A DNA stretch of 46,851 bases, taken from contig PMSS01000120.1 of assembly GCA_003167515.1 (NCBI GenBank), positions 1-46,851 on the forward strand, written 5' to 3'. Shown one piece after another: positions 5,396-46,851 of this stretch (positions are counted from its first letter, which is position 1; each line of letters begins with the position of its first letter). The notes beneath the pieces were generated by a model that did not search any database, had not been told where the DNA came from, and worked only from the letters and a program-made list of their open reading frames with translations. This DNA is from Acidobacterium sp. (GTDB lineage Bacteria; Acidobacteriota; Terriglobia; Terriglobales; Acidobacteriaceae). Both the position numbers and the translations under genes were made by a program.

Positions 5396-6709
5396 TCAGA
5401 CCAGCGCGGGTTCTGGTTCACGCACGCGGCGATAAGGGCAGCCTCTGCCCTCGAGGTGGTCTTCAAACTCTTTGCGAAATTTCTGGACGAAGGCAATGGT
5501 GGGCATCGCGGCCGCGTCGCCGAGCGGGCAGAAGGTGCGGCCCAGCATGTTTTCGGCGAGGTAGCGGATGTTGACGATGTCTTTGTCGACGCCGCCGCCT
5601 TCATGGATCCGTGTGAGGGACTTTTTGAGCCAGTCGGTGCCTTCGCGGCAGGGGATGCACCAGCCGCAGCTTTCGTGTGCGTAGAACTTCATGGTGCGGA
5701 GGGCGAATTCGACCATGCAGGTGGTCTCGTCGAGGACGACGACGCCGCCGGAGCCGAGCATGGAGCCGGCTTTGCCGACCTGATCGAAGTCCATGCCGAT
5801 GTCAATTTCATCCGCGGTGAGGGCGGGCGTGGAGGCTCCGCCAGGAACGACGGCTTTGAGCTTTTTGCCGTTGGGGATGCCACCGCCGACTTCGTAAATC
5901 ATCTTCCTGAGGTTGTAGCCCATGGGCAGCTCGTAGACGCCAGGGCGCTCGATGTGGCCGCTGAGGCAGAAGAGTCGCGTACCTCCGTTGCGTTCGGTGC
6001 CGAGCTTGGCATATTCGGCGCCGCCCATGCGGAAGATGTGCGGGACGGTGGCGATGGTCTCGGCGTTGTTGATGATGGTGGGTCCGCCATAGAGACCCAC
6101 GACAGCGGGAAATGGCGGGCGGATGCGCGGGATGCCGCGCTTGCCTTCGAGCGATTCCATGAGCGCGGATTCTTCGCCTACTTCGTAGGCGCCGGCACCG
6201 GTCTGGGTGACGATGTCGAAGTCGATGCCTGAGCCGAAGATGTTTTTCCCGAGGAAGCCTTTGGCGTAGGCCTGGGCGACGGCCTTCTCCGTAATTTCGA
6301 GGAGGTAGCGGTATTCGCCACGCAGGTAGATGAAGCCCATTTTGGCCTGAACGGAGAGGCCGGCGATGATGGTGCCTTCGATAACGGAGTGGGGATCGTG
6401 CTCGAAGATGAGGCGATCTTTGCAGGTGCCCGGCTCACTCTCGTCTCCGTTCACCAAAACGTATTTCGGCTTCGCCGACTGCTTTGGTACGAACGACCAC
6501 TTGAGGCCGGTTGGGAATCCCGCACCACCACGGCCGCGCAGGTTCGACGCCTTCATCTCATTGATGATTCCATCCGGACCCAGCGTGAGTGCTTTGCGGG
6601 TCGCTTCATAGCCTTCGAGTTCAAGGTACCGGTCGATCGAGGTGGCGCCTTTGCCAAACCGGTACGAAACCACGGGCACGCAGTCGGGATGGGTGGAGAG
6701 CGTCGCCAT
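5396..6709 (-). CDS. nuoF: NADH-quinone oxidoreductase subunit F
   Basis: The 437-residue flavoprotein subunit of complex I, which binds NADH, FMN and one 4Fe-4S cluster. The NADH/FMN glycine-rich loop is LRGRGGAGFPTGLKWSF (residues about 57-73). Next come the FMN-binding stretch NGDESEPGTCKDRLIFEHDP and AYEVGEESALMESLEGKRG. The cluster motif is ESCGWCIPCREGTDWL, with the fourth Cys in RTFCPLGDAA. The nuoE stop and nuoF start share one base (TAATG), which indicates translational coupling. Confidence 0.97.
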   Translation of the reverse strand: MATLSTHPDCVPVVSYRFGKGATSIDRYLELEGYEATRKALTLGPDGIINEMKASNLRGRGGAGFPTGLKWSFVPKQSAKPKYVLVNGDESEPGTCKDRLIFEHDPHSVIEGTIIAGLSVQAKMGFIYLRGEYRYLLEITEKAVAQAYAKGFLGKNIFGSGIDFDIVTQTGAGAYEVGEESALMESLEGKRGIPRIRPPFPAVVGLYGGPTIINNAETIATVPHIFRMGGAEYAKLGTERNGGTRLFCLSGHIERPGVYELPMGYNLRKMIYEVGGGIPNGKKLKAVVPGGASTPALTADEIDIGMDFDQVGKAGSMLGSGGVVVLDETTCMVEFALRTMKFYAHESCGWCIPCREGTDWLKKSLTRIHEGGGVDKDIVNIRYLAENMLGRTFCPLGDAAAMPTIAFVQKFRKEFEDHLEGRGCPYRRVREPEPALV

Positions 6710-7218
6710 TACTTCCCTGCCCTCCCGCGATAATCTGCCAGTACCCGATCGATGGATTCAGGCGTCAGGTTTTCATGGAAGTCATAATTCACCTGAGCCG
6801 CGGGCGCCCACGAACACGCGCCGATGCATTCGACCTCTTCGAGTGAGAACACACCGTCTGACGTGACTCCTTTATTCGGAACACCGAGCTTCTTCTTGCA
6901 GTGTTCGAGAATTTCGTTGCCGCCGCGCAGCATGCAGCTGATGTTGGTGCAGACCTGCACGTGAAATTTCCCAGCGGGTCTGGTGCGCAGCAACGAGTAA
7001 TAGCTGATGACGTTGCGCACCTCGAGCTCAGAAACGCCGACGCGCTCGGCGACTTCGGCGATGACGGCGTCGGAGAGGTAGCCGGTTTCGTCCTGAGCGT
7101 AGAGGAGCATGGGGACAAGGGCGGATCGCTTGACCGGATAGAGGGTGACGAACTGGTCGAAGCGGGCGGCGAGCGCGGGGGAAAAGAGAGCGGCGGGTTG
7201 TGAGGGCTGTGTGCTCAT
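6709..7218 (-). CDS. nuoE: NADH-quinone oxidoreductase subunit E
   Basis: A 169-residue thioredoxin-like [2Fe-2S] subunit of the NADH dehydrogenase module of complex I. The N-terminal helical part contains LVPMLLYAQDETGYLSDAVI and the ISYYSLLRTRPAGKFHVQVC stretch. The four cluster cysteines follow the family pattern: a CTNISC pair, then CIGAC about 40 residues later. The start overlaps the stop of the preceding small gene by four bases (ATGA), so that unknown gene is part of the same coupled transcript. Confidence 0.96.
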   Translation of the reverse strand: MSTQPSQPAALFSPALAARFDQFVTLYPVKRSALVPMLLYAQDETGYLSDAVIAEVAERVGVSELEVRNVISYYSLLRTRPAGKFHVQVCTNISCMLRGGNEILEHCKKKLGVPNKGVTSDGVFSLEEVECIGACSWAPAAQVNYDFHENLTPESIDRVLADYRGRAGK

Positions 7219-7568
7219 CGTTCGTTTCTCGCTGATCCGGCGGCGGCGTTCATCAGAGACGCAACCAGGTCGATGGCGGCATGATCCAGATCCAGAACCG
7301 TGCCGTCGATGTCGATGCGGCCTTCGGGCAGTAACGCAAGCCGCCCTCGTGTCTGCTGACCCATGCCGCTGCTTAAAGACCAGCTCCCGATCGAGTCGTG
7401 CGGATCACGAGTCAGTTCCATAGCCGCATTTCCTGCCACGATTCGGATCGAGTCCCCCTTTTGCGCTACGTCGGCCGATTCTTCGTCGTTCAGACTTCGA
7501 GCTGCGGTATAGGAACACAGCAAGGAAGCGAAAGAAATCCAAAGCTCGGTACTAACCTGATTAGTCAT
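7215..7568 (-). CDS. Hypothetical protein inside the nuo operon (between nuoD and nuoE)
   Basis: A 117-residue protein I do not recognise. It has no signal peptide, membrane segment or cysteine-rich motif. The first 30 residues are mixed; the middle has alternating hydrophobic residues (SIRIVAGNAAMELTRD) and the end has RIDIDGTVLDLDHAAIDLVA, suggesting a small alpha/beta domain. It overlaps its upstream partner and nuoE by four bases each (ATGA), so it is made together with complex I subunits. It shares a loose layout with the upstream gene (GDxI, a DPH segment, a C-terminal helix), so the two might be diverged relatives, but that is weak. Confidence 0.7.
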   Translation of the reverse strand: MTNQVSTELWISFASLLCSYTAARSLNDEESADVAQKGDSIRIVAGNAAMELTRDPHDSIGSWSLSSGMGQQTRGRLALLPEGRIDIDGTVLDLDHAAIDLVASLMNAAAGSARNER

Positions 7569-7969
7569 CCTCGCAAATCAACAACTGCCTTGATTACGAA
7601 CTGGGCGAGGTTGGTCACGTCGACAGGATCAGAGCCGTTCACGCCTGGCAGAAGCGGACTGCTGGTGCTGGCGAGCTTCTGCGGATCCTGTGTGAGGTTG
7701 AAGTTGTAAGCGGTGCGATCCACTACCACGGAGATCGTTCGCGCGTGAGGATCAAGATTGAGAGACACCTTCCGATTCAGAGTGGAGGTAACGGAGATCA
7801 TGTCGCCGGTTTCGGCGAGCGCCAGTTTCGTCTGCGACTTCCCCTCCAGGATTTTATTAATTTCAGCGATAGCCGTGCGCAACTGTTGAGACAGGTCAGA
7901 CCAAGTGTCTTTGGTCTTCGCTTCGCTGTTCAAAACTTCCTGCGCGAATTCAACTGCCCACTCTGCCAT
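7565..7969 (-). CDS. Hypothetical protein inside the nuo operon (immediately after nuoD)
   Basis: A 134-residue protein of unknown function. The N-terminal third is helical and charged (WAVEFAQEVLNSEAKTKDTW, then LSQQLRTAIAEINKILEGK). The rest looks like beta strands: MISVTSTLNRKVSLNLD, TISVVVDRTAYNFNLTQD. It has no cysteines and no membrane helix, so it is unlikely to carry a cluster or be a membrane subunit. A good ribosome binding site precedes the ATG (GAAAGGAGACAGGTC). It lies 20 bases after nuoD and overlaps the next small gene by four bases. The context suggests an accessory or assembly role with complex I; the sequence alone does not show it. Confidence 0.72.
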   Translation of the reverse strand: MAEWAVEFAQEVLNSEAKTKDTWSDLSQQLRTAIAEINKILEGKSQTKLALAETGDMISVTSTLNRKVSLNLDPHARTISVVVDRTAYNFNLTQDPQKLASTSSPLLPGVNGSDPVDVTNLAQFVIKAVVDLRG

Positions 7970-7989
7970 GACCTGTCTCCTTTCTGACC

Positions 7990-9249
7990 TTAGCGGTCGA
8001 TTTCTCCGAGCACAATGTCAATCGACCCAATGACGGCCACCACATCGGCGATGAGGCGGCCGACGCACATGGTTTCGAGCGCCTGGAGCGTCGCGAAGGA
8101 CGGATTACGCATGTGGACACGATACGGTTTGGCGGTGCCGTCGCTAACGGCGTAGTAGCCCATTTCGCCGCGGGGCGATTCGACGGCCTGGTAAACTTCG
8201 CCGGTCGGGACCTGGAAGCCTTCAGTGACGATCTTGAAGTGGTAGATGAGCGCTTCCATTTGCGTCTTCATCTTTTCGCGGTCAGGGAGGACAACGTGCG
8301 GCGCGTCCGCCTTGATGGGGCCTTCGGGCATGCCATCGAGAGCCTGCTGGCAGATCTTCACCGACTCACGCATTTCCTGGAGCCGCACGATGTAGCGCGC
8401 CCAAACATCGCCATCGTTTGAGACGGGCACCTGAAAACGAAACTTGTCATAGCTCGAGTACGGCATGTCGCGGCGCAGATCCCAATCGACGCCGCTGGCG
8501 CGCAGCGGAGGACCGGTAACGCCGAGGGCGATCGCATCCTCTGCGCTGAGATAGCCGACATTTTTGAGCCGGTTAATGAAAATCGGATTGCCGGTGAGCA
8601 GGTTTTCGTACTCGTCGATCTTCTCGGGCAGGATTTTGATGAGAGCCTGGACCGAGTCGAAGAAGTCGAGTGGCGGGTCCAGCGCCAGGCCTCCGATGCG
8701 AAAGTAGGAGGTCATCATGCGCTGACCGGAGAGGTGCTCGAAAATGCGAAGGATTTCCTCGCGCTCGCGGAAGGTATAGAGGAAGACGGTGAGCGCGCCG
8801 ATGTCCATGGCGTGCGTGCCGAGCCAGACCAGGTGCGAATTGAGCCGCGTGAGTTCGTTGAGCAGCACCCGCATCCACTGGGCACGCTCGGGGATTTCGA
8901 GTTGGAGAAGCTTCTCGATCGCGAGGCAGTAGGCGAGGTTGTTCGTCATCGGACACAGGTAGTCGATCCGATCGGTCAGCGGCACCACCTGCTGGTAGAA
9001 CTTAGCCTCGCAGGTTTTTTCGATCCCGGTGTGCAGATAGCCAATGTCCGCGACCAGTTTCACAACGGTCTCGCCGTCAATCTCGAGCACCACGCGCAGC
9101 ACACCATGCGTCGAAGGATGCTGCGGCCCCATGTTGAGGACCATGGTGTGATCCTTCGAGCCTTCTTCCGGACGCGGCACAACGAGCGTGGATGTCTCGA
9201 CGAACCCCGGAATTTCCGGCATATCGTGCCGGTCAGAATAGTCGGGCAT
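7990..9249 (-). CDS. nuoD: NADH-quinone oxidoreductase subunit D
   Basis: The 419-residue 49-kDa-type subunit that forms the quinone-binding site with NuoB. Signature stretches are NMGPQHPSTHGVLRVVLEID, GYLHTGIEKTCEAK, TRLNSHLVWLGTHAMDIGAL and PRGEMGYYAVSDGT; the C-terminus ends VLGEIDR, as in the family. The open frame runs 39 codons further upstream but that part overlaps nuoC. The ATG at 9249 is chosen because it shares one base with the nuoC stop (TGATG) and the protein then starts MPDYSDRHDMPEIPGF. Its usual partner gene nuoB is not adjacent here. Confidence 0.96.
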   Translation of the reverse strand: MPDYSDRHDMPEIPGFVETSTLVVPRPEEGSKDHTMVLNMGPQHPSTHGVLRVVLEIDGETVVKLVADIGYLHTGIEKTCEAKFYQQVVPLTDRIDYLCPMTNNLAYCLAIEKLLQLEIPERAQWMRVLLNELTRLNSHLVWLGTHAMDIGALTVFLYTFREREEILRIFEHLSGQRMMTSYFRIGGLALDPPLDFFDSVQALIKILPEKIDEYENLLTGNPIFINRLKNVGYLSAEDAIALGVTGPPLRASGVDWDLRRDMPYSSYDKFRFQVPVSNDGDVWARYIVRLQEMRESVKICQQALDGMPEGPIKADAPHVVLPDREKMKTQMEALIYHFKIVTEGFQVPTGEVYQAVESPRGEMGYYAVSDGTAKPYRVHMRNPSFATLQALETMCVGRLIADVVAVIGSIDIVLGEIDR

Positions 9250-35806: not shown

Positions 35807-36445
35807 TCATCTGTCGAGATAGAGAGCGAGAAGCCCCTGGGATTCGAGTCCGAAGGTGTTGACTACGCGATTGAACGTGGCGAAGAGTGCGGCGATGTGA
35901 ACTGCCTCGGCGATCTGTAGTTCGCTCCAGCCGGTGTGAGACAGGGTCTCCACGTCAGCACGGGTGATTTCGTGGGAGCGGCTGTTCACCTTTGCCGCAA
36001 ACCTCAGCAGTGCTTGTTCGACAGCACTGAGCGATGGCGAATTAAGATCATTTTCCTGAATCGCGGATAGAGCCTCGGCGGAGCCGCCATGGACGCGGAG
36101 AAAGTATCCATGGCTGTCGGCGCAATAAGCACAGGCGTTTTGGGATGACACGAGCGTGGCGATCATCTCTTTGTGCCGGCGGATTAAGTATCCATCCACG
36201 AAGAGCAGGCTCTCAGCCAGATCGATCATGTGCCGCAGCAGGGGCGGGTGGGTGGCGAAGCACTTCAGGATTCCGGGAATATCGCGTCTGCCAAAGGCAG
36301 AGCGGAAGTGATCGTAGAGCAGCGCAACCTCACCGGTGGCCTGATCTTCCTCGATGATCGGGAGATTCCTCGACGCCGGGGGCTTATGGGTCGGGGGCCT
36401 ATGGTTCGCGACCACTGCGGAAAGCTTCTCGGATTCGGGTAGCAC
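35807..36445 (-). CDS. AhpD-like carboxymuconolactone decarboxylase family protein
   Basis: A 212-residue AhpD/CMD-family protein. The redox centre is SSQNACAYCADSHGYFLR (CxxC followed by His). Before it lies HPPLLRHMIDLAESLLFVDG, after it a helical bundle with AVEQALLRFAAKVNSRSHEI. Proteins with this centre act as disulfide-based peroxidases. The open frame runs 41 codons further, but AGGAGG stands eight bases before the GTG at 36445, and the upstream part overlaps the neighbouring gene's end. It follows the second AhpD-like gene by 46 bases, presumably one transcript. Confidence 0.87.
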   Translation of the reverse strand: MLPESEKLSAVVANHRPPTHKPPASRNLPIIEEDQATGEVALLYDHFRSAFGRRDIPGILKCFATHPPLLRHMIDLAESLLFVDGYLIRRHKEMIATLVSSQNACAYCADSHGYFLRVHGGSAEALSAIQENDLNSPSLSAVEQALLRFAAKVNSRSHEITRADVETLSHTGWSELQIAEAVHIAALFATFNRVVNTFGLESQGLLALYLDR

Positions 36446-36491
36446 GATGGGAGCCTCCTGTGAGGGACGGGTTGCGGCTGTTTTTTCGTGC

Positions 36492-37064
36492 TCAGCGGGC
36501 AGCAGTTTCCGCGGGCAGATATGTCTTGCTGACGGCGACATATCCCTCGCGCGCGACCTGCTTGCCACGTTCGCGATACAGGGCTTCGTCGCGGGGCTGA
36601 ATGGTATCGAGCCCGTCTACGTAGCGGTTGTACATACAGAAGGCCGCGGCGATCAGGACGGTATCGTGGATTTCGAGGTCGGTTGCGCCGAGGCTGCGCG
36701 CATGCGCGACGTCGGCCGCGGTGACGTTCTTGCCGCCTCGCTGGACCTTCGCCGCGATGACGAGGAGAGCCTTCAGCTTCTCTGAGATGTCCGCGTGCTG
36801 AAAGTCGCTTTTGACGCGCCTGACTAAGTCTTCGTCGCCCTTGAGATGGGCTGCGGCAATGGCGCCGTGAATGGTCTGGCAGTAGTAGCAGTCGTTCAGA
36901 GAAGAGACATAGGTGGCGATCAGCTCGCGTTCGCCAGGCGTGAGCGTGCCGGGGCCGCGCAGCAGGACTTCGACGAGTTCGTTGAGCGGTTTGGCGGTTT
37001 CGGGGCGGAAGGCCATGGCGGCGCGGATTCCGGGTAATCCTTCGGGCAGGGCAATGTGGGGCAT
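36492..37064 (-). CDS. AhpD-like peroxidase-related protein
   Basis: A 190-residue AhpD/CMD-family protein with the redox centre SSLNDCYYCQTIHGAIAAAH (CxxC, then His). Preceding it are RPETAKPLNELVEVLLRGPG and TPGERELIATYV, typical of the peroxidase-related subgroup. It ends YLPAETAAR. The two tandem genes share the CxxC-H layout but little else, so they are diverged paralogues. A purine-rich AAAGGATGAAG precedes the ATG. Confidence 0.88.
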   Translation of the reverse strand: MPHIALPEGLPGIRAAMAFRPETAKPLNELVEVLLRGPGTLTPGERELIATYVSSLNDCYYCQTIHGAIAAAHLKGDEDLVRRVKSDFQHADISEKLKALLVIAAKVQRGGKNVTAADVAHARSLGATDLEIHDTVLIAAAFCMYNRYVDGLDTIQPRDEALYRERGKQVAREGYVAVSKTYLPAETAAR

Positions 37065-37368: not shown

Positions 37369-40300
37369 ATGAGATTCGCGGAGTCAGTGTCACGCGGAAT
37401 CCTCGCTTCGGTTCTGACCGTTGCTGCGCTTCTTTTCACGGGGTGTCATTCGGGCCTGCCGAAGCCCGAGTCGGCGCAATATACGCAATTCGTGCAGGCG
37501 TTTTACGTGGGGTTGGCAGCGATGGAGGTGGGCAACGACGTTCGCGCGGAGGACATGCTGGGCCGGGCGACGCAGTTGGCGCCGGGAGAGCCGGCGGGGT
37601 GGGCGGACTGGGGGATTCTGGCGCTGCGGCAGCGCAACTTCGACGAGGCAAAGCGGCGGCTGGACGAGGCGCACCGGCTTGCTCCGCACAACGGGCAGAT
37701 CGACGCCGATCTGGGCACGCTCGAAAGCGCGCGCGGGAATTCCGCGGTAGCCATCGCGGATTTTCGCGAAGCACTTGCTCGCGACCCGAGGAATGTACGC
37801 ACCATCTATCAGCTCGCGCTGGAGGTGGAGCGCCAGGGAGGAACGGACAGTGAGGCGGAGTTTCAGGGGCTGATGGAGCGGATCCTCGGCGCGCAGCCGG
37901 AGAATCTGCCGGCGCTGCTGGAGTTGAGCCGCATCGCCGCAAAACGCGGGGACACGGCCACCCTTCGATCTGCTGTCGCTCGCATCGCTGCGCAATCCGG
38001 CGCGTGGCCTGCCATGGTGCAGCAACGGCTTGCGGAGTTACAGAGCGCGGCTGCGAGCGCACCCGCCACGGCGGCGATCCGCAGCATTTTTCTTCGCAAC
38101 GTTCTCATGCAGGTTCCCAGTTTTCGGCAGAGTCTGGCTGTTATCAAGGCGCAACCTGGCGAGGAAGCCCAACCTTTCTTGGATTTTGCGCGGCTTCCGT
38201 CGCCGCGTTCCCGGCCTGCGGCACCCGACACAGCGATGCGTTTTGTTGCGGAGACGCTGACGGATCAACAGGGGCAGAAGTGGGACTGGATTGGCGCAGT
38301 CTCGCTGAACGATGCGCAACCGCCCGTGTTGCTGACGGCAAATGCGAAGACGGTGAGCCTGATGGGTGGCCCTGCGTTTGTGTTTCCTGGAGGCGCGCAC
38401 GGCACGGCGCCGGGGCCGGAATCTGTTCTGCCGGTGGACTTCAATTACGACTTCAAAACAGACCTGGTGCTGGCTGGCGCGGGCGGCGTGAGGTTCATGC
38501 GCCAGGATTCGCCGCAGAAATTCACCGACGTTTCGGCGCAGACGAACCTGCCGTCGGCGATTCTGAACGGCGACTATACGGGCGCGTGGGCTGTCGACAT
38601 TGAAGCGGACGGCGATCTGGACATTGTGCTGGGTTCGCAGAGCGGGGCGCCCACAGTGCTGCGCAACAACGGCGACGGGACCTTTACGCCGATCCACCCC
38701 TTCGCGGGAATCTCGGGCATGCAGCAGTTTGTGTGGGCCGATCTGGATGGCGACGGCAATCCCGATGCTTCGCTGATCGACGGCGCGGGGCGTCTCCACG
38801 TTTTTCATAACGAGAGAGCGGGGAATTTTCGCGAGATCGCCGTGCCGGGAAATCTCGGATTTTTGAAGGCGATTGCAGCCGCGGATACGCGGCACGGCGG
38901 CACCCTCGATCTGCTGGCGGTGGGAGCCGATGGGGCGATTGTGCGTCTCGTGAATCAGGACGGTGCGTGGATTTCGACGGAGATTGCACGCGTGGCAAAT
39001 CCTGAAAAGGTGTTGAGCGGGGCTGTTCGGCTGGCTACGCCGGATCTCGACAATAATGGAGCGGCCGATCTGGTGCTGATGCAGGTGGGAGTGGCGGCCA
39101 CGGATGGGGGCGCCCTGGTTTGGTTGGCTAACGAAGACGGCACGTTCACGCTGATGGATCATGCTGCGGGTCCGGCGCGCGTCTTTGCAGCCGCCGATGT
39201 GAACGGCAGCGGCCATCTGGATCTGCTGGGGCTCTCCGCAGAGGGTGAGCCGGTAAAGGGAGTCAATCACGGAACGATGCATTATCACTGGCAGGTGATT
39301 CGGACCCGGGCCGTGCAGGCGACGGGCGACCAGCGGATCAATTCGTTCGGCATCGGCGGTGAGGTTCAGATTCGTTCGGGGTTGCTGCTGCAGGCGCAGG
39401 CCATCAGCGGGCCGGAGGAGCATTTTGGGCTGGGTGAGTGGACAGAGACCGACGTGGCGCGGATTCTATGGCCGAACGGGACGGTGAATGCGGAGTTCGA
39501 GCTAAAAGACGATCAGGAGGTGCTGGCGCAGCAGCGGCTGAAGGGGTCTTGTCCGTTTCTTTTCGCGTGGGACGGGAAAGAGATGCGATTCGTGAAGGAC
39601 ACCGTGCCGTGGGGATCGGCCATCGGGTTGCGCATTGATGCGCTGGGGCCGGCCCGCATCGTTGCCACGCAGGAGTGGTACAAGATTCCGCGCGGCGATC
39701 TTGTGCCTCGTGACGGCGCGTACGATCTGCGCATCACGGGCGAGCTGTGGGAGACGTATTACTACGACTGGCTCGAACTGATGACGGTGGATCATCCGCA
39801 GGGTACGGAGGTATTCACCGATGAGCGCTTCGTCGTACCACCGGTGAAACTCGCGATCACGGCGACCGAGGCCCCGCATCCCATCGCGCGCGCGGCGGAC
39901 GATCGTGGCAACGATGTGACAGAAGTCTTGCGTTCGCTCGACGGCCGCTATCTGGATACATTTGGCCGTGGGCAATACCAGGGCGTAACGCGCGATCACT
40001 ATGTCGAGATTGATTTGGGTAATAATGTGCCCACGAGCGGGCCGCTGTATCTCATCGCACGCGGCTGGCTCCATCCATCGGATTCTTCGATCAACGTGGC
40101 GATGAGCCAGGGTCATCATGAGCAATCGAAGCCGCTGAGTCTCGAGGTTCAGGATGGGCACGGCGGATGGGTAGTGGCGCGGCCCAACCTGGGATTCCCG
40201 GCAGGGCGCAACAAGATTTGCCTGATCGATCTGACCGGGGTCTTTAGGCCTGACACGCCGCGCAAAGTGAGACTGCGGACCAACCTTGAAATCTATTGGG

Positions 40301-40866
40301 ACCAGATTCAGTGGGCGCGCGGGTTACCCGGCACACTGCTCAAGATAACCCGCATTGAGCCGTCAACCGCGGACCTGCGCTATCGCGGGTACTCAACCAT
40401 CCATCAGGCGAATGCATCGTCACCGGAGGTTCCGAACTACAACCATCTGATGTCGACTGCGCAGATTTGGCCGGACCTTGAAGGCTACTACACGCGCTTT
40501 GGTGACGTGCGCGAGTTACTGCGCAGGATCGACGACCGCTACGTGATCATGAATGCCGGCGACGAGATAGCGCTGCGCTTTCCGGCGCCGCCTCCGCCGC
40601 CACGGGGCTGGGTGCGCGATTATGTGATTGCCGGCGATGGCTGGATCAAGGACGGCGATTACAACTCAACCGATTCCGCCACCGTAGGCCCGCTGCCATA
40701 CCACGAGCGAACGGAGTATGACACGCCGCCGCTCCCGCTCGATCAGGAATGGGTCTATCGTCGTCATCCAAAAGATTGGCTCACATGGCAGACGCGCTAT
40801 GTAACTCCGGAGCCTTTCCGCAATGCTCTGAACGATGCGCCAGGGAAAACGAGACCGCAGCAATGA
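37369..40866 (+). CDS. Exported TPR-VCBS-UnbV repeat lipoprotein
   Basis: A 1,165-residue envelope protein. The N-terminus has a signal helix ending LLFTGCHS; Cys26 fits a lipobox, though with Phe at -3. TPR repeats cover about residues 40-210 (EDMLGRATQLAPGEPAGWAD, FDEAKRRLDEAHRLAPHNGQ). VCBS/FG-GAP strands with calcium-loop motifs follow at about 370-640 (DIEADGDLDIVLGSQSG, WADLDGDGNPDASLID, TPDLDNNGAADLVLM). An ASPIC/UnbV segment comes next (EEHFGLGEWTETDVARILWP), then an uncharacterised roughly 430-residue domain (AYDLRITGELWETYYYDWLE). The stop overlaps the next gene (ATGA). Confidence 0.85.
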   Translation: MRFAESVSRGILASVLTVAALLFTGCHSGLPKPESAQYTQFVQAFYVGLAAMEVGNDVRAEDMLGRATQLAPGEPAGWADWGILALRQRNFDEAKRRLDEAHRLAPHNGQIDADLGTLESARGNSAVAIADFREALARDPRNVRTIYQLALEVERQGGTDSEAEFQGLMERILGAQPENLPALLELSRIAAKRGDTATLRSAVARIAAQSGAWPAMVQQRLAELQSAAASAPATAAIRSIFLRNVLMQVPSFRQSLAVIKAQPGEEAQPFLDFARLPSPRSRPAAPDTAMRFVAETLTDQQGQKWDWIGAVSLNDAQPPVLLTANAKTVSLMGGPAFVFPGGAHGTAPGPESVLPVDFNYDFKTDLVLAGAGGVRFMRQDSPQKFTDVSAQTNLPSAILNGDYTGAWAVDIEADGDLDIVLGSQSGAPTVLRNNGDGTFTPIHPFAGISGMQQFVWADLDGDGNPDASLIDGAGRLHVFHNERAGNFREIAVPGNLGFLKAIAAADTRHGGTLDLLAVGADGAIVRLVNQDGAWISTEIARVANPEKVLSGAVRLATPDLDNNGAADLVLMQVGVAATDGGALVWLANEDGTFTLMDHAAGPARVFAAADVNGSGHLDLLGLSAEGEPVKGVNHGTMHYHWQVIRTRAVQATGDQRINSFGIGGEVQIRSGLLLQAQAISGPEEHFGLGEWTETDVARILWPNGTVNAEFELKDDQEVLAQQRLKGSCPFLFAWDGKEMRFVKDTVPWGSAIGLRIDALGPARIVATQEWYKIPRGDLVPRDGAYDLRITGELWETYYYDWLELMTVDHPQGTEVFTDERFVVPPVKLAITATEAPHPIARAADDRGNDVTEVLRSLDGRYLDTFGRGQYQGVTRDHYVEIDLGNNVPTSGPLYLIARGWLHPSDSSINVAMSQGHHEQSKPLSLEVQDGHGGWVVARPNLGFPAGRNKICLIDLTGVFRPDTPRKVRLRTNLEIYWDQIQWARGLPGTLLKITRIEPSTADLRYRGYSTIHQANASSPEVPNYNHLMSTAQIWPDLEGYYTRFGDVRELLRRIDDRYVIMNAGDEIALRFPAPPPPPRGWVRDYVIAGDGWIKDGDYNSTDSATVGPLPYHERTEYDTPPLPLDQEWVYRRHPKDWLTWQTRYVTPEPFRNALNDAPGKTRPQQ

Positions 40867-42653
40867 AGCGAATCCCGGTAGCTCGCATCATTCTTACTCT
40901 CTTATTCGTGGGCATGCTGGCCACGCCGGTCATCCTGCGACGTCTCTCGTTGCGGCGCGGCCAACCGGACGCAGGCCACACTGATTGCCAGTCGGCGCTG
41001 GCGCGTTACGGTTTCTGTTTTGAGGAAGTCTCGAAGCAGGCGGAAGTTAACTTTGTGCACGAAGCTCCGCAACTCGATCCGAAGCTCGATCCGATCATGC
41101 CGGAGATCGCTTCGATGGGCGCCTCTGTCTCCATTGTGGATTACAACCGCGACGGATGGCCTGACATTTACGTTACTAACAGCAGAACCGGCAGCATGAA
41201 CCATCTTTACCGCAACAATCACGACGGCACTTTTACCGACGTGGCGCCGGAGCTGGGCATCGCCGATGTCAACAAGCCGGGCACAGGCGTCTCGATGGGC
41301 GTGGTGTGGGGCGATTACGACAATGACGGCTATGAGGACCTGTTCCTGATCAAGTGGGGCAAGCCGGAGCTCTTTCACAATGATCATGGGCAGGGTTTTA
41401 CCAACGTGACTGCCCAGGCTGGACTGCCCTCGTGGATCAATGCAAACACCGCGACGTGGCTCGACTACGATGGCGACGGAAAGCTGGACCTGTTTGTCGG
41501 AGGCTACTATCCGGAAGACGTAGACCTGTGGCATCTGAAGAACACGCGCATGATGCCGGAAAGCTTCGAGTACGCGAAGAACGGGGGCCGAAAGTATCTC
41601 TTTCATAATTTAGGCAACGGACACTTCGAAGAGGTTAGCGCGAAGGTTGGCATCGACAGCCGGCGGTGGGCGCTGGCTTGCGCGGCTGCCGATCTGCGCG
41701 GAACCGGCTATCCCGACCTATTCGTCGCCAATGATTACGGCGTCTCGGAACTCTACCTGAACGATCACGGCCATTTCCACGAAGCTGGCGAGCAGACCGG
41801 TGTGGGTTTTGCGCCGAAGAGCGGCATGAATGCGGCTTTCGGAGATATCTTTAACCAGGGAAAGTACGCGATTTATGTGTCGAATATCTCCGAGGAAGGA
41901 GTGCTGATTCAGGGAAACAACCTATGGGTTCCGCAGGAGGGCAGCGGCCTCCACTATCAGAACATGGCCCGCGATCTGGGCGTGGAGCTGGGCGGATGGA
42001 GCTTCGGCGCGCAGTTTGGCGACCTGAATAACGACGGCACTCTGGATCTATTTCTCGAGAATGGATACATTTCGGCGTCGAAAACCAGGAGCTATTGGTA
42101 TGACTTTTCGAAAGTGGCTGGCGGCAACAGCTCTATCATCAGCGATGCGGCGCACTGGCCGGCGTTCGACGGGCGCAGCCTTTCCGGCTACCAGCAGAAG
42201 AAAGTCTGGATCAACGACGGCTCGGGGAAATTCGAGGATGTAGCGCAGGCGACAGGCGTGACCGATCGCTACGATGGACGCGCGGTGGCGCTGGCGGATT
42301 TGTGGAACACAGGAGCGCTGGACGCCGTCGTCGCCAACCAGGCCGGCCCTCTGCTGATTTATAGGAACACTGTGGCTCCGGGGAACGACTGGATCGAGTT
42401 CGATCTGGAAGGCACGCGGAGCAACAGCAGCGCCATCGGGGCGCAGGTTATGCTGGTCTGGAATGGCGAGGAACAGATACAGTCCGTCTCGGGGGGCAAC
42501 GGGTTTGCATCTGAGAATGACCGGCGCCTGCACTTCGGGCTGGGGAAGAACCCACATATCGAGAAGGCGGTAATTCACTGGCCCTCGGGGGCCGTCCAGA
42601 CGCTCGAGAATCTCACGCCTAACCGCCTGTATCAGGTGAAGGAGCCCGCGTGA
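40863..42653 (+). CDS. CRTAC1-like FG-GAP/UnbV repeat protein
   Basis: A 596-residue exported protein. Its N-terminus is a signal-anchor (KRIPVARIILTLLFVGMLAT). The body is a beta-propeller-type series of FG-GAP/VCBS repeats with calcium loops: IVDYNRDGWPDIYVTNS, WGDYDNDGYEDLFLIKWG, WLDYDGDGKLDLFVGGY, FGDLNNDGTLDLFLENGY. The C-terminus has an ASPIC/UnbV domain (GAQVMLVWNGEEQIQSVSGG, RRLHFGLGKNPHIEKAVIHW). The ATG at 40863 is chosen because of the ATGA overlap with the preceding lipoprotein; the frame is open 38 codons earlier. It overlaps the RnfD-like gene (GTGA). Confidence 0.9.
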   Translation: MKRIPVARIILTLLFVGMLATPVILRRLSLRRGQPDAGHTDCQSALARYGFCFEEVSKQAEVNFVHEAPQLDPKLDPIMPEIASMGASVSIVDYNRDGWPDIYVTNSRTGSMNHLYRNNHDGTFTDVAPELGIADVNKPGTGVSMGVVWGDYDNDGYEDLFLIKWGKPELFHNDHGQGFTNVTAQAGLPSWINANTATWLDYDGDGKLDLFVGGYYPEDVDLWHLKNTRMMPESFEYAKNGGRKYLFHNLGNGHFEEVSAKVGIDSRRWALACAAADLRGTGYPDLFVANDYGVSELYLNDHGHFHEAGEQTGVGFAPKSGMNAAFGDIFNQGKYAIYVSNISEEGVLIQGNNLWVPQEGSGLHYQNMARDLGVELGGWSFGAQFGDLNNDGTLDLFLENGYISASKTRSYWYDFSKVAGGNSSIISDAAHWPAFDGRSLSGYQQKKVWINDGSGKFEDVAQATGVTDRYDGRAVALADLWNTGALDAVVANQAGPLLIYRNTVAPGNDWIEFDLEGTRSNSSAIGAQVMLVWNGEEQIQSVSGGNGFASENDRRLHFGLGKNPHIEKAVIHWPSGAVQTLENLTPNRLYQVKEPA

Positions 42654-43516
42654 CACCGCCGGTAGCCGTGAAGCAAACCGCCGAGGTCCCATCTGTTCCG
42701 CGCTGGAAGCAGATGCTGGACAGCCGGTTTGCGCCGCCGGTTTTGATCACGCTCATTTTGCTGGCGGGCAATCTGTCTTTCGGGATTCTCGAGAGCTACC
42801 AGAAAACGCTGCTGGCAATTGTAACCAGCATTGCGACAGAAATGGTGCTGGGGCGCATCTTTCTGCATAAGTGGCCGCATCCCGCGAGTGCCTACATTAC
42901 GGGGATCAGCGTCGGCATTCTGCTGCGCTCTCCGGCGTTCTGGCCGTATGCGCTGTGCGCAGCGCTTTCCATTACTTCGAAGTACGTGTTGCGTTATCGC
43001 GGGCGCCACATCTGGAACCCTTCTAACTTCGGCATCTGTGCAATGCTGGTTGTGGCGTCAGCGTCGGTGGCCGGACTCAGCATCCAGTGGGGCAATAACT
43101 TCGCCGCCGTGATTGTGATTTGGGTCCTGGGATCGCTGATTCTGTGGCGCGCCAAGCGGTTTCACATCACTGCTGTTTACGTGGTTTCGTTTTTCCTGCT
43201 CGGGTTTCTGCGCGCCCGTATCATCGGCGATCCCTGGCAGTCGGAAATCTCGCCCATGACGGGCCCCATGTACCAGCTCTTTATCTTTTTCATGATCACG
43301 GATCCCAAGACCACTGTCCGCACCCGCACGGGCCAGTGCGTCGTCGCCTTCGCCATTGCCTTCGTGGAATTCCTGATGCGTCTCGACCAGAGCGTGTATG
43401 CGCCGTTGTATGCGTTGTTCTGGGTTGGTCCGACGGCGCTGTTCGTCGAAATGTGGATCGATTCCCGTCGCACCCGCGCTGGTGGCGCCTTGAACCCACA
43501 GCCTGCTCGTCCTTAG
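42650..43516 (+). CDS. RnfD/NqrB-like flavin membrane protein
   Basis: A 288-residue membrane protein related to RnfD/NqrB, the FMN-carrying membrane subunits of Rnf and Na+-NQR redox pumps. Seen are YITGISVGILLRSPAFWPYA, the conserved RGRHIWNPSNFGI (NP motif), and SEISPMTGPMYQLFIFFMIT with DPKTT. In the family an FMN is bound to a Thr in a similar spot (S-G-A-T); here T204 of SPMTG is the candidate, but the context differs. There are about nine helices. The GTG start is coupled to CRTAC1 (GTGA). No other rnf or nqr subunit is nearby, so it acts alone or with the coupled repeat proteins. Confidence 0.85.
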   Translation: MTPPVAVKQTAEVPSVPRWKQMLDSRFAPPVLITLILLAGNLSFGILESYQKTLLAIVTSIATEMVLGRIFLHKWPHPASAYITGISVGILLRSPAFWPYALCAALSITSKYVLRYRGRHIWNPSNFGICAMLVVASASVAGLSIQWGNNFAAVIVIWVLGSLILWRAKRFHITAVYVVSFFLLGFLRARIIGDPWQSEISPMTGPMYQLFIFFMITDPKTTVRTRTGQCVVAFAIAFVEFLMRLDQSVYAPLYALFWVGPTALFVEMWIDSRRTRAGGALNPQPARP

Positions 43517-45081
43517 TTACCCACGGAGGAGGCCCCTGGCTGGAAACCGCAACGCTCGAGCATCCTCAGGATTTCGTCGTGCGTCGCGTCCAGCTTGCCC
43601 GCACTTTCCAGCAGGTCGTTCGCTTCGACGGCATACCAGTTGCGCCGCCCCGGCCGACCCAGCCCCGCGACGTTGAACGGCTCAATCGCGAGCAGAATGT
43701 CGCGGATCAATTCTGCCGATTCTGTTTTGGCCCGGGGCCGCTGCGCGCGCTCGAAAAGACGGACGCATTCAGGCCCAAAGACCGGATGCTCGCATAAGAG
43801 GAACGATGAAACCAGTTCTGGTTTGCCCAGCCTCCGCGCTGCTTCGGAATAGCTGGCCGCGGCAAAGTAGAGCAGCGAAAGCGCGGTAAACACGGGGAAG
43901 TTACTCATATTGGCATAGAGAGCCGCGATAAGTCGTGCGGTCGCGAGTAACTCGTGGTCCGTTTGTGTGGCATAGGTATCGAGCCTTCTATCGAGGTAGG
44001 GCGAACCCCAGTCCTCATCGATGATTTCCGCCAGGCGCGCGACTCCGAGCAGCGTCAGGGGGAACCCAGTCGACAGCAACGGATCGACAAAGCCTGCGGC
44101 CGATGGCAGAAGAGCCCATCGAGGTCCGGCAACCTGCGCTGAACGGAAACTCAGGCGGGGGATGTGGATAAAGGGCCGCTCCGCCTTCGCGGTTGCGAAC
44201 TGCTCATGCAACGCAGGAATGAGGTTCAGAAGCCGATCCCACGCCTGGCCGCTGTTTTCGAAGTGCAACTGAGCAGCGATCTGACTGGTTGCCGCAATCC
44301 CGGCGCTCGTCATTCCGTTATCGAATTGCAGCACCCATACCCATCCGCCATCGAAGATGTGATGCACCGCGGCGTCGTCGATCGGAAAGGGAGGAGCTTC
44401 CCCCGTTCGGCTATATTGTGTTTCTTCGAGGCGTCGAACCCCGAAAAAGTGGCTATAAAGTGCGTGGGTCGCCGGATAACCTTGTAACTCCCGTTCACCT
44501 ATGCCGAGAGCGTGATGAAGAAATCCGCGAGGTCCGGTCGCGTCAACTACAAACCTTGCGCGAAATGTCATAGCCTGCCCGTTCCGTTGCCCTTCCAGTC
44601 TCACTTCGCTTCCGCAATCTGCGAACCGGCGCAGCGCAACCTGATCCACGTATTCGACGCCCAGCTTCTGAGCTTCCTCGACCAGAAAGCTGTCGAAGTC
44701 AGCCCGGTACCAATGCGTGTCAGCAATCTCATCGCGCGGGCTGGCCGTAACCAGCAGTTGATCCTGAGGGTTCTGATCCGGAGGCTGCGGTGAAGCAAGC
44801 ACATGGTGATGAAATGTAAATCCGCGCTTCAGTCCACAGGCTATGTGGGGATAGGTTCGCTGCCAGCTTCCCCATTTCGCAAGCGGTCGCAGAGAGGGTA
44901 GGTTGTAGCGCGTGGCCAATTCTTCCAGCAACAGATTGGAGAGAGGCGTGGAGGATTCACCGATGACCACGCGCGGATGGGACCCCTTCTCGATCAGAAC
45001 AACCGAGTGCCCAAGCCGGCGTGCGATCATGGCCAGCAGCGACCCCGCAAACCCTGATCCTACGATCGCGATGTCATACAT
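43513..45081 (-). CDS. FAD-dependent halogenase-like oxidoreductase
   Basis: A 522-residue flavoprotein of the tryptophan-halogenase-like group. The FAD-binding start is MYDIAIVGSGFAGSLLAMIA (GxGxxG), a second flavin motif is VVDATGPRGFL, and IGESSTPLSNLLLEEL follows the first strand, as in this group. At residue 247 it has GGWVWVLQFDNG, a WxW pair close to the WxWxIP signature of flavin-dependent halogenases but with Leu-Gln instead of Ile-Pro. Halogenation is possible but not proven; monooxygenation is the alternative. It is five bases downstream of the radical SAM gene and converges on the RnfD-like gene with a four-base overlap. Confidence 0.85.
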   Translation of the reverse strand: MYDIAIVGSGFAGSLLAMIARRLGHSVVLIEKGSHPRVVIGESSTPLSNLLLEELATRYNLPSLRPLAKWGSWQRTYPHIACGLKRGFTFHHHVLASPQPPDQNPQDQLLVTASPRDEIADTHWYRADFDSFLVEEAQKLGVEYVDQVALRRFADCGSEVRLEGQRNGQAMTFRARFVVDATGPRGFLHHALGIGERELQGYPATHALYSHFFGVRRLEETQYSRTGEAPPFPIDDAAVHHIFDGGWVWVLQFDNGMTSAGIAATSQIAAQLHFENSGQAWDRLLNLIPALHEQFATAKAERPFIHIPRLSFRSAQVAGPRWALLPSAAGFVDPLLSTGFPLTLLGVARLAEIIDEDWGSPYLDRRLDTYATQTDHELLATARLIAALYANMSNFPVFTALSLLYFAAASYSEAARRLGKPELVSSFLLCEHPVFGPECVRLFERAQRPRAKTESAELIRDILLAIEPFNVAGLGRPGRRNWYAVEANDLLESAGKLDATHDEILRMLERCGFQPGASSVGN

Positions 45082-45086
45082 CTCGC

Positions 45087-46061
45087 TCAGCGGTTTCCTC
45101 CGCAGTGTTGGCAGACGACAAAGGGCAAAATAGTTTGCCCAATATTCATGCTATGCAACCGCGCGATTCGCTGCTGATGGCAATGCTCGCAGGTCGTGCT
45201 CCGGCGGAGATCCCACAGATCAGTAAAGACGCGTCCTCGGCGGAGCTTGATGCCATAAGCTGCAGCGGCTTCGACGGTCGCCAGTGTTGGTGGCGAGAAA
45301 TCGCCGCTCGTGGCCAGCTCCTCCATGGCTCCGTTGCCTCCTCGCGTCGGAATCAGTGTCGCTGCCGTCGCCCCGCAGTCAAAGGCGAACTCCAGCGAGC
45401 GAGCAGCCCATTCGAGCGCCTTTTCTTCCCGCATGAAGGGTGGCTTCACCAGGATGAAGACGCGCAGGTCGACATCATGCTTCAGCAGAAGATCGGCCGC
45501 CGTTGCAAATTGGTCGACCGACATCCGCTTGTTTAGTCGACTGAGCGTCTCCGGGTGAACTGTTTCGAGGCCCATAGCGACTTCAAGCGTGCCGCTCAAC
45601 CTGTCTCGAAATCGCCAGCAATCGTCGCCGACCAGTGCCGGATGACATTCCACGATCGATCGCTCGAAGTTAGTAACTCGATCGGCGATGGATGCATGGT
45701 CCTCGAGCGGAATTGCTTTCCTGTCGAAGAAGCTGCCGCTGTTATAGAGCTTGAGTTGTCGAGCCGGCGGCAGCCGATTTAAGGCATAATCGATCTGCGC
45801 CGGGATCGCGCCGAGCGCGGTATCGCTCGCCAGCGTGTTCCGCCAGAGATCGCACATCAGGCAGCGCCAGGGGCACTCGCGATTGGTGAGAAAGATGGTT
45901 GCAATCGGAACAACCTCTCCGGTCGCCGCGCATTCATCCTCGACGTGAAACGAGTAAGGCCGGAAAGGATCAAGCGCGTTGCGCCGCGGACGCCGCGTGA
46001 GAATCCAGGAGTCACGCTCGGCGATGGTCGTTGGGTAAGAAGACGGCAACGCGACCCTCAA
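45087..46061 (-). CDS. Radical SAM enzyme with C-terminal zinc ribbon
   Basis: A 324-residue enzyme. Cys63-x3-Cys67-x2-Cys70 (NRECPWRCLMCDLW) binds the 4Fe-4S cluster of radical SAM proteins. Then come YNSGSFFDRKAIPLEDHASI and TLEVAMGLETVHPETLSRLN, which fit the Elp3/TIGR01210-like subgroup. A C-terminal pair of CxxC motifs (CEHCHQQR and CQHCGG) suggests a zinc site. The start overlaps the stop of the PP-loop gene (ATGA), and the stop is five bases from the flavoprotein gene. The substrate is unknown; the context suggests a biosynthetic modification. Confidence 0.88.
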   Translation of the reverse strand: MRVALPSSYPTTIAERDSWILTRRPRRNALDPFRPYSFHVEDECAATGEVVPIATIFLTNRECPWRCLMCDLWRNTLASDTALGAIPAQIDYALNRLPPARQLKLYNSGSFFDRKAIPLEDHASIADRVTNFERSIVECHPALVGDDCWRFRDRLSGTLEVAMGLETVHPETLSRLNKRMSVDQFATAADLLLKHDVDLRVFILVKPPFMREEKALEWAARSLEFAFDCGATAATLIPTRGGNGAMEELATSGDFSPPTLATVEAAAAYGIKLRRGRVFTDLWDLRRSTTCEHCHQQRIARLHSMNIGQTILPFVVCQHCGGNR

Positions 46062-46851
46062 TGGTAGAGCGACAGAAACTGCTCGCGGTATTCAGCCTCG
46101 CGATAGGGCAGGTGTGCATGCAGGGAATCCTCAGGGAGAGCGCCGTGCTGGAAACGTCGCTTGGGGAAGACCGGCATGTCGAAACCGGTCACCGCTTTAA
46201 TCCCGCGCGCGACAATCTCGCCCTTCAGTTCGTAGAGGCGATCGACGCTGTAATGCGTCAGATCGATGAAAGGAATCGCTTCCGCCACTGCGATGACGTT
46301 AGGTCTCGTGCAGGGACTGAAGCCGTGGAAGCCGTGACGACGCCCCGTGGCATAGGTGCGTACATAGGAGCGGCTCAGTCCACCGCTGTAGGTGAGCGAG
46401 TGCTTGATCTTGCCGACGCCCCAGCCTTCCTGATAGAGCATTGAGTTATTAATCACGCTGCGAATGGTTAGTTCTGGATTCTCTTCGATCGGATAATCCT
46501 TCAGGTTCTCATCTCCGCCGTCGCCGTCGACTAAGTAGCGCCAGTCAGGATGGCGGGCGCGAATGCCGCGTCCCAGGGCCAGTGCCATCGTCGCTGACTC
46601 GATATCGAGCGGCTTATAGTCTTCCACCACTCGTATGGTCTCGTTCACATCGAGCGCCGACGCATCGGCTTCGATCGGCTCGAGGAACAGCGATAGCCCC
46701 AGTTGTTCCAGGAAGCATCGCGCCTGTCGCAAATCCGGGCCATCCCCAAGATCGAGAACGAAAGCCTTGAGCCGAGTCAGGTTCATGCCGAGCCGCTGCA
46801 TCACGTGATAGGTGGTGATGAAGACACTCCCGCTGTCGATGCCGCCGGAGA
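46058..46851 (-). CDS. Asparagine-synthase-like PP-loop protein (cut by window edge)
   Basis: About 263 C-terminal residues are visible. The open frame continues beyond the right edge, and its first codons give SGGIDSGSVFITTYHVMQRL, the ATP-binding PP-loop SGGxDS of asparagine synthetase-like enzymes. Further on are DIESATMALALGRGIRARHP, YLVDGDGGDENLKDYPIEEN (the second ATP/aspartyl-AMP site; D-G-x-G-G-D-E-N/E) and RPNVIAVAEAIPFIDL. The glutaminase half, if any, lies off the window. Such enzymes make amide or lactam bonds in some natural-product pathways. It is the first visible gene of the operon. Confidence 0.9.
   Translation of the reverse strand, partial: SGGIDSGSVFITTYHVMQRLGMNLTRLKAFVLDLGDGPDLRQARCFLEQLGLSLFLEPIEADASALDVNETIRVVEDYKPLDIESATMALALGRGIRARHPDWRYLVDGDGGDENLKDYPIEENPELTIRSVINNSMLYQEGWGVGKIKHSLTYSGGLSRSYVRTYATGRRHGFHGFSPCTRPNVIAVAEAIPFIDLTHYSVDRLYELKGEIVARGIKAVTGFDMPVFPKRRFQHGALPEDSLHAHLPYREAEYREQFLSLYH

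What the first reader, a model, noticed from the sequence alone, without database searches (positions are those of the whole stretch)
37369..43516. Three-gene coupled cassette: TPR/VCBS/UnbV lipoprotein, CRTAC1 protein and RnfD-like flavin protein
Seen: ATGA and GTGA overlaps join the three genes, so they are made in fixed proportion. The lipoprotein and CRTAC1 protein are calcium-loop repeat proteins outside the cytosol. The third has the RnfD/NqrB NP motif and a Thr in the area where the FMN ester sits. Known: RnfD/NqrB normally work in six-subunit complexes. No other subunit is here. Inference: a stand-alone membrane flavin protein serves the exported repeat proteins, perhaps passing electrons outward.
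Basis: partly seen in the sequence, partly recalled or inferred. Interest (0 to 1): 0.85.

Follow-up and report, generated by a model that had tools for sequence, protein, structure and literature searches.

The report
Enediyne-type UnbV/UnbU cassette without polyketide synthase
Many soil bacteria carry a fixed set of three envelope genes, two of which resemble a pair that belongs to an indispensable but unexplained part of the machinery making enediyne antitumour antibiotics; here the pair occurs without the antibiotic-making enzyme, so its role may be more general and can be tested.

Summary
The three overlapping genes are real: lipoprotein 37369-40866, CRTAC1 40863-42653, RnfD-fold membrane protein 42650-43516. 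The order is conserved: CRTAC1 lies directly upstream of the RnfD-like gene in 79 of 80 related loci, mostly Acidobacteriota but also Planctomycetota, Latescibacterota, a Chthonomonadaceae MAG and Fodinibius. The genome (87% complete) shows no RnfA/RnfE-type subunit and no ApbE. The proposed FMN-ester threonine is refuted: the loop that carries it in RnfD/NqrB is missing. Three of four NqrB riboflavin contacts are kept, the fourth is an invariant His. Here no enediyne PKS or DUF1702 (UnbL) was found. An unnamed 'HWxEH' membrane family, and more weakly an AhpD-like protein, occur in both settings. Best reading: a PKS-free cousin of UnbV/UnbU, a membrane redox unit with a non-covalent flavin serving exported beta-propeller proteins. 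Module, order and missing loop are shown; redox function and substrate are inferred. New variant of a known kind.

The parts
37369..40866 (+). Envelope lipoprotein, 1165 aa: signal with Cys26 (LFTGC), TPR (about 50-200), FG-GAP beta-propeller, weak ASPIC/UnbV (681-717), unnamed C-terminal region (736-1165) with a possible CBM/F5-8C-like beta-sandwich
   Evidence: C-terminal model pLDDT 88.9, marginal CBM32/35-like matches, Z about 8-9, over model residues about 98-252; lipobox-like Cys in 33 of 61 homologues with a strict pattern and 51 of 61 with a relaxed one; some, e.g. L136, L140, L141, L144, show a hydrophobic anchor instead
40863..42653 (+). CRTAC1 protein, 596 aa: N-terminal hydrophobic anchor, FG-GAP propeller, C-terminal ASPIC/UnbV domain; counterpart of enediyne UnbV (E4)
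   Evidence: cartilage acidic protein 1 structure 9etn E 1.6e-13; hydrophobic segment in the N-terminal open frame of 68 of 70 homologues (crude window score)
42650..43516 (+). RnfD/NqrB-fold membrane protein, 288 aa, without the FMN-ester loop, riboflavin-type pocket largely kept (T84, H120, N123, D218); counterpart of enediyne UnbU (E5)
36492..37064 (-). CMD/AhpD-like protein (CMD1), divergent from the cassette; 49-50% identical to proteins about 9-11 kb from UnbU in three Streptomyces enediyne loci; possible accessory
   Evidence: in 6 of 80 related loci
35807..36568 (-). Second CMD-like protein overlapping CMD1; possible accessory
   Evidence: in 6 of 80 related loci
43513..45081 (-). FAD-dependent monooxygenase/halogenase-like protein, convergent with the cassette; recurrent neighbour
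   Evidence: Trp_halogenase PF04820 3.5e-13; in 35 of 80 loci
45087..46061 (-). Radical-SAM protein (RaSEA-like, below cut-off); recurrent neighbour
   Evidence: TIGR01210 90.4 bits vs 212 cut-off; in 36 of 80 loci, downstream of the RnfD-like gene in all 36
46058..46804 (-). Asparagine-synthase-like protein, 248 aa here against 443 aa in L084, so probably cut by the contig end (46851); recurrent neighbour
   Evidence: in 34 of 80 loci

Best explanation
The cassette encodes a membrane-bound, outward-facing redox unit of the UnbV/UnbU kind that works without an enediyne polyketide synthase. SHOWN: three co-oriented overlapping genes in an order conserved across several phyla; a membrane protein with the RnfD/NqrB fold that lacks the covalent-FMN loop but keeps three of four NqrB riboflavin contacts (the fourth is an invariant His); partners with an export signal or membrane anchor and beta-propellers; the same CRTAC1-then-RnfD-like order in enediyne clusters, directly before the PKS gene in most of those looked at. 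INFERRED: the RnfD-like protein holds a non-covalent flavin and relays electrons between the membrane and a substrate or cofactor held by CRTAC1 and the lipoprotein outside. By analogy with the enediyne pair, whose cassette makes highly unsaturated carbon chains (recalled), I think it most likely that substrate oxidation outside feeds electrons inward to the quinone pool; this direction is a guess.
For: Conserved order, 79 of 80 loci. Fold: RnfD/NqrB first (8rbq_D E 9.6e-6; Z 18-21 against about 10-12 for urea, ammonium and Rh channels). FMN loop missing. Riboflavin contacts of NqrB (Thr162, Asn200, Asn203, Asp346; PMC9325719 passages) map to T84, H120, N123, D218: T/S, H, N and D in 93 of 93 cassette rows (at least three genomes counted twice) and 4 of 4 enediyne rows; two of these four positions (N123, D218) are among only seven invariant columns of 12 divergent proteins. 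Enediyne pair: L058 = DUF1702, CRTAC1, RnfD-like, PKS; L063 = CRTAC1, RnfD-like, DUF1702, HWxEH, PKS; S. globisporus C-1027 plasmid = DUF1702 x2, CRTAC1, RnfD-like, PKS. 29 plasmid records match the window protein; S. clavuligerus ones are annotated 'enediyne biosynthesis protein UnbU', others 'enediyne biosynthesis protein' or RnfD. HWxEH membrane family within the fetched 10 kb of the cassette in 15 of 80 loci (upstream in 14, downstream in L136), and directly after the RnfD-like gene in L042; 55% identical (E 5e-66) to a protein of the C-1027 locus; 12 of 14 plasmid records with it have an UnbU within about 11 kb (all Streptomyces, several near-copies). With it lie a YtkA-like and a NapH-like (below its cut-off) Fe-S membrane protein in 14 of 55 loci with at least 9.5 kb upstream, as an electron route might need.
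Against: No flavin, redox activity or substrate has been shown. The CRTAC1 family is large (47 matching stretches on 17 contigs of this genome, window included) and cassette CRTAC1 scores lower against UnbV (117-152 bits) than against most own-genome paralogues (123-236 bits for the ten used). Cassette CRTAC1 and UnbV, and cassette RnfD-like and UnbU, are separate clades whose mutual kinship is unresolved, so the pairing may have arisen twice. RnfD-like to UnbU identity is only 24-27%. HWxEH and NapH-like proteins were not found in this genome, HWxEH in only 3 of 21 cassette genomes, and only 13 of 50 plasmid records with UnbU have HWxEH. The fold family also contains channels.
Confidence: 0.5

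Rival explanations
1. The RnfD-like protein is a channel or transporter, not an electron carrier: it moves a small solute or product across the membrane to the CRTAC1 protein and lipoprotein, as its fold relatives (urea and ammonium transporters) do.
For: Same inverted-repeat fold (RnfD described as resembling urea and ammonium transporters in PMC9588780 passages); no covalent-FMN loop; an invariant His (H120) in the core pocket.
Against: RnfD/NqrB are closer (Z 18-21 vs about 10-12; profile E 1e-35 to RnfD); flavin-contact residues are among the most conserved positions.
Confidence: 0.25
2. A structural or display module without redox chemistry: the membrane protein is a docking platform for surface propeller proteins that bind glycans or calcium.
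For: TPR, propellers and a possible CBM/F5-8C-like domain in the lipoprotein; CRTAC1 family members are often extracellular binding proteins (general knowledge).
Against: Invariant flavin-pocket residues; the related E4/E5 genes belong to a cassette called indispensable for building the enediyne skeleton (PMC11069151 passages; the chemistry is recalled).
Confidence: 0.15
3. One reading: covalently flavinylated stand-alone RnfD (FMN ester on Thr) exporting electrons to the propeller proteins.
For: RnfD fold and NP motif; 10 of 21 cassette genomes do have an ApbE.
Against: Loop with the FMN threonine absent; no ApbE found in the own genome or in 10 further ones of 21 cassette genomes.
Confidence: 0.03

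Closest known systems
Enediyne PKS cassette proteins UnbV/E4 (CRTAC1 family) and UnbU/E5 (RnfD-like), of E3/E4/E5/E/E10
   Same: CRTAC1 gene directly before an RnfD-like gene, co-oriented; both lack the FMN loop and keep K, H, N, P and D core residues; HWxEH family near some members of both
   Different: No PKS or DUF1702 beside it or found in the genome; a TPR/propeller lipoprotein precedes it; 24-27% identity; separate clades in both trees
RnfD / NqrB subunits of Rnf and Na+-NQR
   Same: PF03116, fold, NP and TDP motifs, most riboflavin contacts
   Different: Far below the TIGR01946 cut-off, no covalent-FMN loop, no PF02508 subunits found in the genome
Two-subunit Nqr/Rnf-like complexes (PMC8238504, PMC11334425; passages seen)
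   Same: NqrB/RnfD-like membrane domain without the flavinylation threonine, next to an extracytosolic partner
   Different: No NAD-binding C-terminal domain, no FMN-bind partner; the partner is CRTAC1
RnfD-like proteins next to or fused with DUF2330 (L047 by eye, L052 by Pfam)
   Same: Short-loop RnfD-like protein; His at the NqrB Asn200 position in most of this group
   Different: Different extracytoplasmic partner; no CRTAC1 in the fetched stretch

Membership tests
PF03116 NQR2_RnfD_RnfE | Score above Pfam gathering cut-off | tested here: met
   40.3 vs 27.7 bits
RnfD of the Rnf complex | TIGR01946 subfamily score | tested here: not met
   22.4 vs 207.05 bits
RnfD / NqrB flavoprotein | Loop with FMN-ester threonine | tested here: not met
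   Loop absent in the window protein and 93 cassette rows; NqrB T236 (7xk3_B vs the T236Y chain 9ud3_B) lies in the missing insertion
RnfD / NqrB flavoprotein | Non-covalent riboflavin contacts (NqrB T162, N200, N203, D346) | tested here: inconclusive
   T/S84, N123, D218 kept; N200 replaced by invariant H120
Rnf or Nqr complex | RnfA/RnfE (NqrD/NqrE) subunits, PF02508, in the genome | tested here: not met
   0 hits in the own 87%-complete genome; 2 of 21 cassette genomes have them
Rnf or Nqr complex | RnfB, RnfC, RnfG (or NqrA, NqrC, NqrF) in the genome | not tested
   Not searched
Enediyne PKS cassette | CRTAC1 (E4) directly before RnfD-like (E5) | tested here: met
   Same order in L058, L063, L068, L152, L153
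Enediyne PKS cassette | Enediyne type I PKS | tested here: not met
   No large PKS ORF in the window; own-genome KS hits 32-33% identical in frames of 398-572 aa; genome incomplete
Enediyne PKS cassette | DUF1702 (UnbL/E3) | tested here: not met
   0 in the own genome; 1 of 21 cassette genomes (the two enediyne-type genomes in the same call matched)
CRTAC1 / ASPIC-UnbV family | FG-GAP propeller plus UnbV_ASPIC domain | tested here: met
   136.6 and 76.6 bits, both over cut-off
Nqr/Rnf-like two-subunit complex | Fused NAD-binding domain and FMN-bind partner | tested here: not met
   Only PF03116 in the protein; no FMN-bind match in the cassette proteins or the adjacent genes scanned
Redox flavoprotein | Bound flavin and electron transfer | not testable with these tools
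   Needs purified protein

The most novel reading that the evidence does not exclude
UnbV/UnbU of enediyne biosynthesis are a borrowed branch of a widespread bacterial envelope oxidation machine. In Acidobacteriota and other phyla this machine, with its lipoprotein and, in some, the HWxEH metal-motif membrane protein and NapH-like Fe-S protein, desaturates or otherwise oxidises a lipid-like product made by the recurrent neighbours (Asn-synthase-like, radical-SAM, FAD halogenase-like). Short-loop RnfD-like proteins pair elsewhere with DUF2330 or a redoxin, so they may form a general non-covalent-flavin conduit serving many exported partners.
Probability: 0.25. Interest if true: 0.82.

Novelty: new variant of a known kind. 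Interest (0 to 1): 0.6.

Why it matters
The roles of E3, E4 and E5 of the enediyne cassette were still called uncertain in 2024 (PMC11069151, passages). A PKS-free, conserved relative of the E4/E5 pair in cultured bacteria (for example Silvibacterium bohemicum, Acidipila rosea, Fodinibius sediminis) lets the pair be studied apart from a toxic product, and shows that an RnfD-fold protein without the covalent-FMN loop has a life outside Rnf/Nqr. The unnamed HWxEH family, with conserved His and Glu in two HxxEH motifs, is a further candidate enzyme found in both settings.

Tried and rejected
Covalent flavin on Thr: rejected. Rnf complex remnant: rejected for most genomes as far as PF02508 tells. 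Enediyne cluster in the window or own genome: not found. The partner of HWxEH in Streptomyces clusters (about 140-150 aa) as a YtkA homologue: tested and not found. The Geminocystis HWxEH plasmid: no UnbV/UnbU-like neighbour seen, no Pfam match in the three neighbours scanned. Trees to show that UnbV/UnbU and the cassette pair share one origin: unresolved, long branches. Fold of the lipoprotein's last 430 residues: Foldseek gave nothing at E <= 0.001; VIA-align gave only marginal CBM/F5-8C-like matches to one part; a profile search of PDB sequences gave only replication-factor chains at E 0.03-0.2, which I take as chance. I did not model the lipoprotein or CRTAC1 together with the RnfD-like protein. 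Literature, open-licence library only: no paper held with UnbU+UnbV, enediyne+UnbV, RnfD+ASPIC, at least four of five enediyne-cassette terms with SgcE4/SgcE5, RnfD+enediyne; 'CRTAC1 family protein' gave one paper, on anammox, listing only; one search gave 11 listings, of which I looked at passages of two (PMC3174227, PMC3909097): both only list ASPIC/UnbV domains in genomes, with no word on RnfD-like partners in the passages shown.
Full report
What is there. The window is contig C400 of a 501-contig assembly, 5.0 Mb, 87.15% complete, 4.03% contamination. The lipoprotein has an export signal ending in LFTGC (Cys26), TPR units, FG-GAP repeats, a weak ASPIC/UnbV match and about 430 C-terminal residues with no Pfam match; CRTAC1 has FG-GAP and UnbV_ASPIC; the third protein matches PF03116. 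The NCBIfam RnfD model scores it at 22.4 bits against a cut-off of 207.

Conservation. In the phylum sample, 33 of 297 genomes match the RnfD-like protein; 14 of these (own genome included) match at 55% identity or more. A pattern scan of the collection of 84,980 species genomes gave 302 relatives, of which the best 80 were kept. CRTAC1 precedes the RnfD-like gene in 79 of 80; in the exception only 189 nt precede the match. The lipoprotein is present in 66 of 67 loci with at least 3.3 kb upstream by script, and in the 67th (L077) on inspection. The loci include named isolates (Silvibacterium bohemicum, Granulicella sp. S190, Acidipila rosea, Acidicapsa dinghuensis, Aquisphaera insulae, Fodinibius sediminis) and MAGs titled Latescibacterota, Chthonomonadaceae and others; a few MAG titles (Burkholderiales, Alphaproteobacteria, Betaproteobacteria) may be binning errors. 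Some genomes appear in both collections (L108/L037, L113/L033, L124/L035 share contig length and place), so rows are not all independent. A second CRTAC1-type gene follows in 46 of 68 loci with at least 2.5 kb downstream, not in the window. Of 17 distant RnfD-like loci in the phylum, none has a CRTAC1 match in the stretch held.

Flavin test. Aligned to E. coli RsxD and, by profile, to RnfD and NqrB chains of known structure, the window protein lacks the extracytoplasmic insertion that holds the FMN threonine. The T236Y mutant chain 9ud3_B and wild type 7xk3_B differ in that insertion, which marks the site. Spacing from the NP motif to the next helix is 34-35 residues in 93 cassette rows, 41-42 in four enediyne rows, 111 in RsxD. 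The NqrB riboflavin contacts Thr162, Asn200, Asn203, Asp346 (PMC9325719, passages) fall on T84, H120, N123, D218. In the 93 rows these are T/S, H, N, D without exception, and likewise in four enediyne rows; in 19 others H120 is kept in 16. ApbE is not found in 11 of 21 cassette genomes, the own one included, and is found in 10 (two further genomes carry only the enediyne type). The predicted model (mean pLDDT 77, 14 sequences) matches RnfD/NqrB best, then urea, Rh and ammonium channels.

The enediyne link. Two Acidobacteriota loci found by the same search carry DUF1702, CRTAC1, RnfD-like and a roughly 1920-aa PKS: L058 in the order DUF1702, CRTAC1, RnfD-like, PKS, and L063 in the order CRTAC1, RnfD-like, DUF1702, HWxEH protein, PKS (DUF1702 of both also; the L058 PKS was scanned, the L063 one read by eye). 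L064 has the RnfD-like gene before what looks like a PKS start (by eye). I recognised this as UnbL-UnbV-UnbU-PKSE from memory; the records then bore it out: the C-1027 producer's plasmid has DUF1702, DUF1702, CRTAC1, RnfD-like, type I PKS, and 29 plasmid records match the window protein, the S. clavuligerus ones annotated 'enediyne biosynthesis protein UnbU'. The cassette E3/E4/E5/E/E10 is described in PMC5181780 (passages); equating E3, E4, E5 with DUF1702, CRTAC1, RnfD-like rests on gene order and recall. PMC11069151 (passages) calls the cassette indispensable for skeleton formation and the roles of E3-E5 uncertain; overexpressing tnmE3/E4/E5 there did not raise the yield. Gui et al. 2024 on a diiodotetrayne intermediate was seen only as a title in a reference list; its content is recalled. 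In the own genome no such PKS and no DUF1702 was found; of 21 cassette genomes one has DUF1702.

Shared neighbours. Fifteen of 80 loci carry, near the cassette (upstream in 14, downstream in L136), an unnamed roughly 200-aa membrane protein with two HxxEH motifs; in 14 of the 55 loci with at least 9.5 kb upstream it lies with a YtkA-like and a NapH-like protein, the latter below its curated cut-off. In L042 the HWxEH, YtkA-like and NapH-like genes follow the RnfD-like gene directly on the same strand. The HWxEH protein is 55% identical (E 5e-66) to a hypothetical protein of the C-1027 locus. Of 14 plasmid records with it, 13 also hold an UnbU, 12 within about 11 kb; these are Streptomyces, several near-copies, and 37 of the 50 records with UnbU have no HWxEH match. 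It was not found in the own genome nor in 17 others of 21 cassette genomes. The window's CMD1, divergent from the cassette, is 49-50% identical to proteins about 9-11 kb from UnbU in three Streptomyces loci, but it is near the cassette in only 6 of 80 loci and CMD proteins are common, so this is weak.

The trio. FAD halogenase-like, radical-SAM and Asn-synthase-like genes recur on the other side: at least one in 34 and all three in 31 of 60 loci with at least 6 kb downstream; the radical-SAM or Asn-synthase-like gene is downstream in all 36 loci that have one. In most Acidobacteriaceae loci they are convergent with the cassette, as in the window, but in L147 (titled Bryobacterales) and L039 all three, and in L140 and L141 (titled Planctomycetales and Aquisphaera) two of them, follow the RnfD-like gene on the same strand. 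The changed orientation argues for a working link rather than plain synteny; the product is unknown.

Kinship limits. In the RnfD-like tree, cassette proteins form one clade (100/99) and enediyne UnbU another with L060 and L064 (100/99); how they join is unresolved. In the CRTAC1 tree, cassette CRTAC1 (99/99) and UnbV (100/100) are separate clades; own-genome paralogues and the second CRTAC1 fill the rest. Thus 'works like UnbV/UnbU' is better supported than 'shares the same pair by descent'.

Verdict. The mechanism (non-covalent flavin relay to exported propeller proteins) is inference at about 0.5; channel function is the main rival.

Noticed in passing
L052:6042-8270 (-); L047:7789-8637 (-): Short-loop RnfD-like proteins of the phylum are fused to DUF2330 (L052, Pfam 6e-81) or lie before a gene that looks like DUF2330 (L047, by eye): a different exported partner for the same membrane fold.
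   Followed up: partly
L069:5333-6720 (Metabacillus plasmid pB218): A redoxin-domain gene overlaps an RnfD-like gene, another possible partner pairing.
   Followed up: no
L061:6331-8020: A gene that looks ApbE-like (by eye) overlaps a distant RnfD-like gene.
   Followed up: no
L070 (Serratia proteamaculans plasmid), 4251-8894: DUF1702, VCBS (UnbV-like) and RnfD-like genes lie together without a large type I PKS in the fetched stretch; a ketoacyl-synthase-like gene is nearby.
   Followed up: no
window 43513-46804 (-): FAD halogenase-like, radical-SAM (RaSEA-like) and Asn-synthase-like genes recur next to the cassette in Acidobacteriota and, in part, Planctomycetota; product unknown.
   Followed up: partly
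L093:1367-1966; L068:6634-7197; L063:5905-6447: Unnamed roughly 180-200 aa membrane family with two HxxEH motifs and a conserved ELHLFYN-like stretch, found at Acidobacteriota cassette loci and in enediyne clusters; looks metal-binding.
   Followed up: partly
L197 (own contig C74:1000-8035): A paralogue of the lipoprotein (1132-aa frame, 37% identical over the C-terminal region) in the same genome, away from the cassette.
   Followed up: no
L108:1917-2699 and similar in about 20 of 80 loci: ABC-transporter permease and ATPase genes that look nitrate/sulfonate/taurine-type (by eye) lie mostly divergently upstream of the cassette.
   Followed up: no
L105, L121, L128, L135: MAGs titled Burkholderiales, Alphaproteobacteria or Betaproteobacteria hold RnfD-like proteins 61-70% identical to the window's; binning errors are likely.
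   Followed up: no
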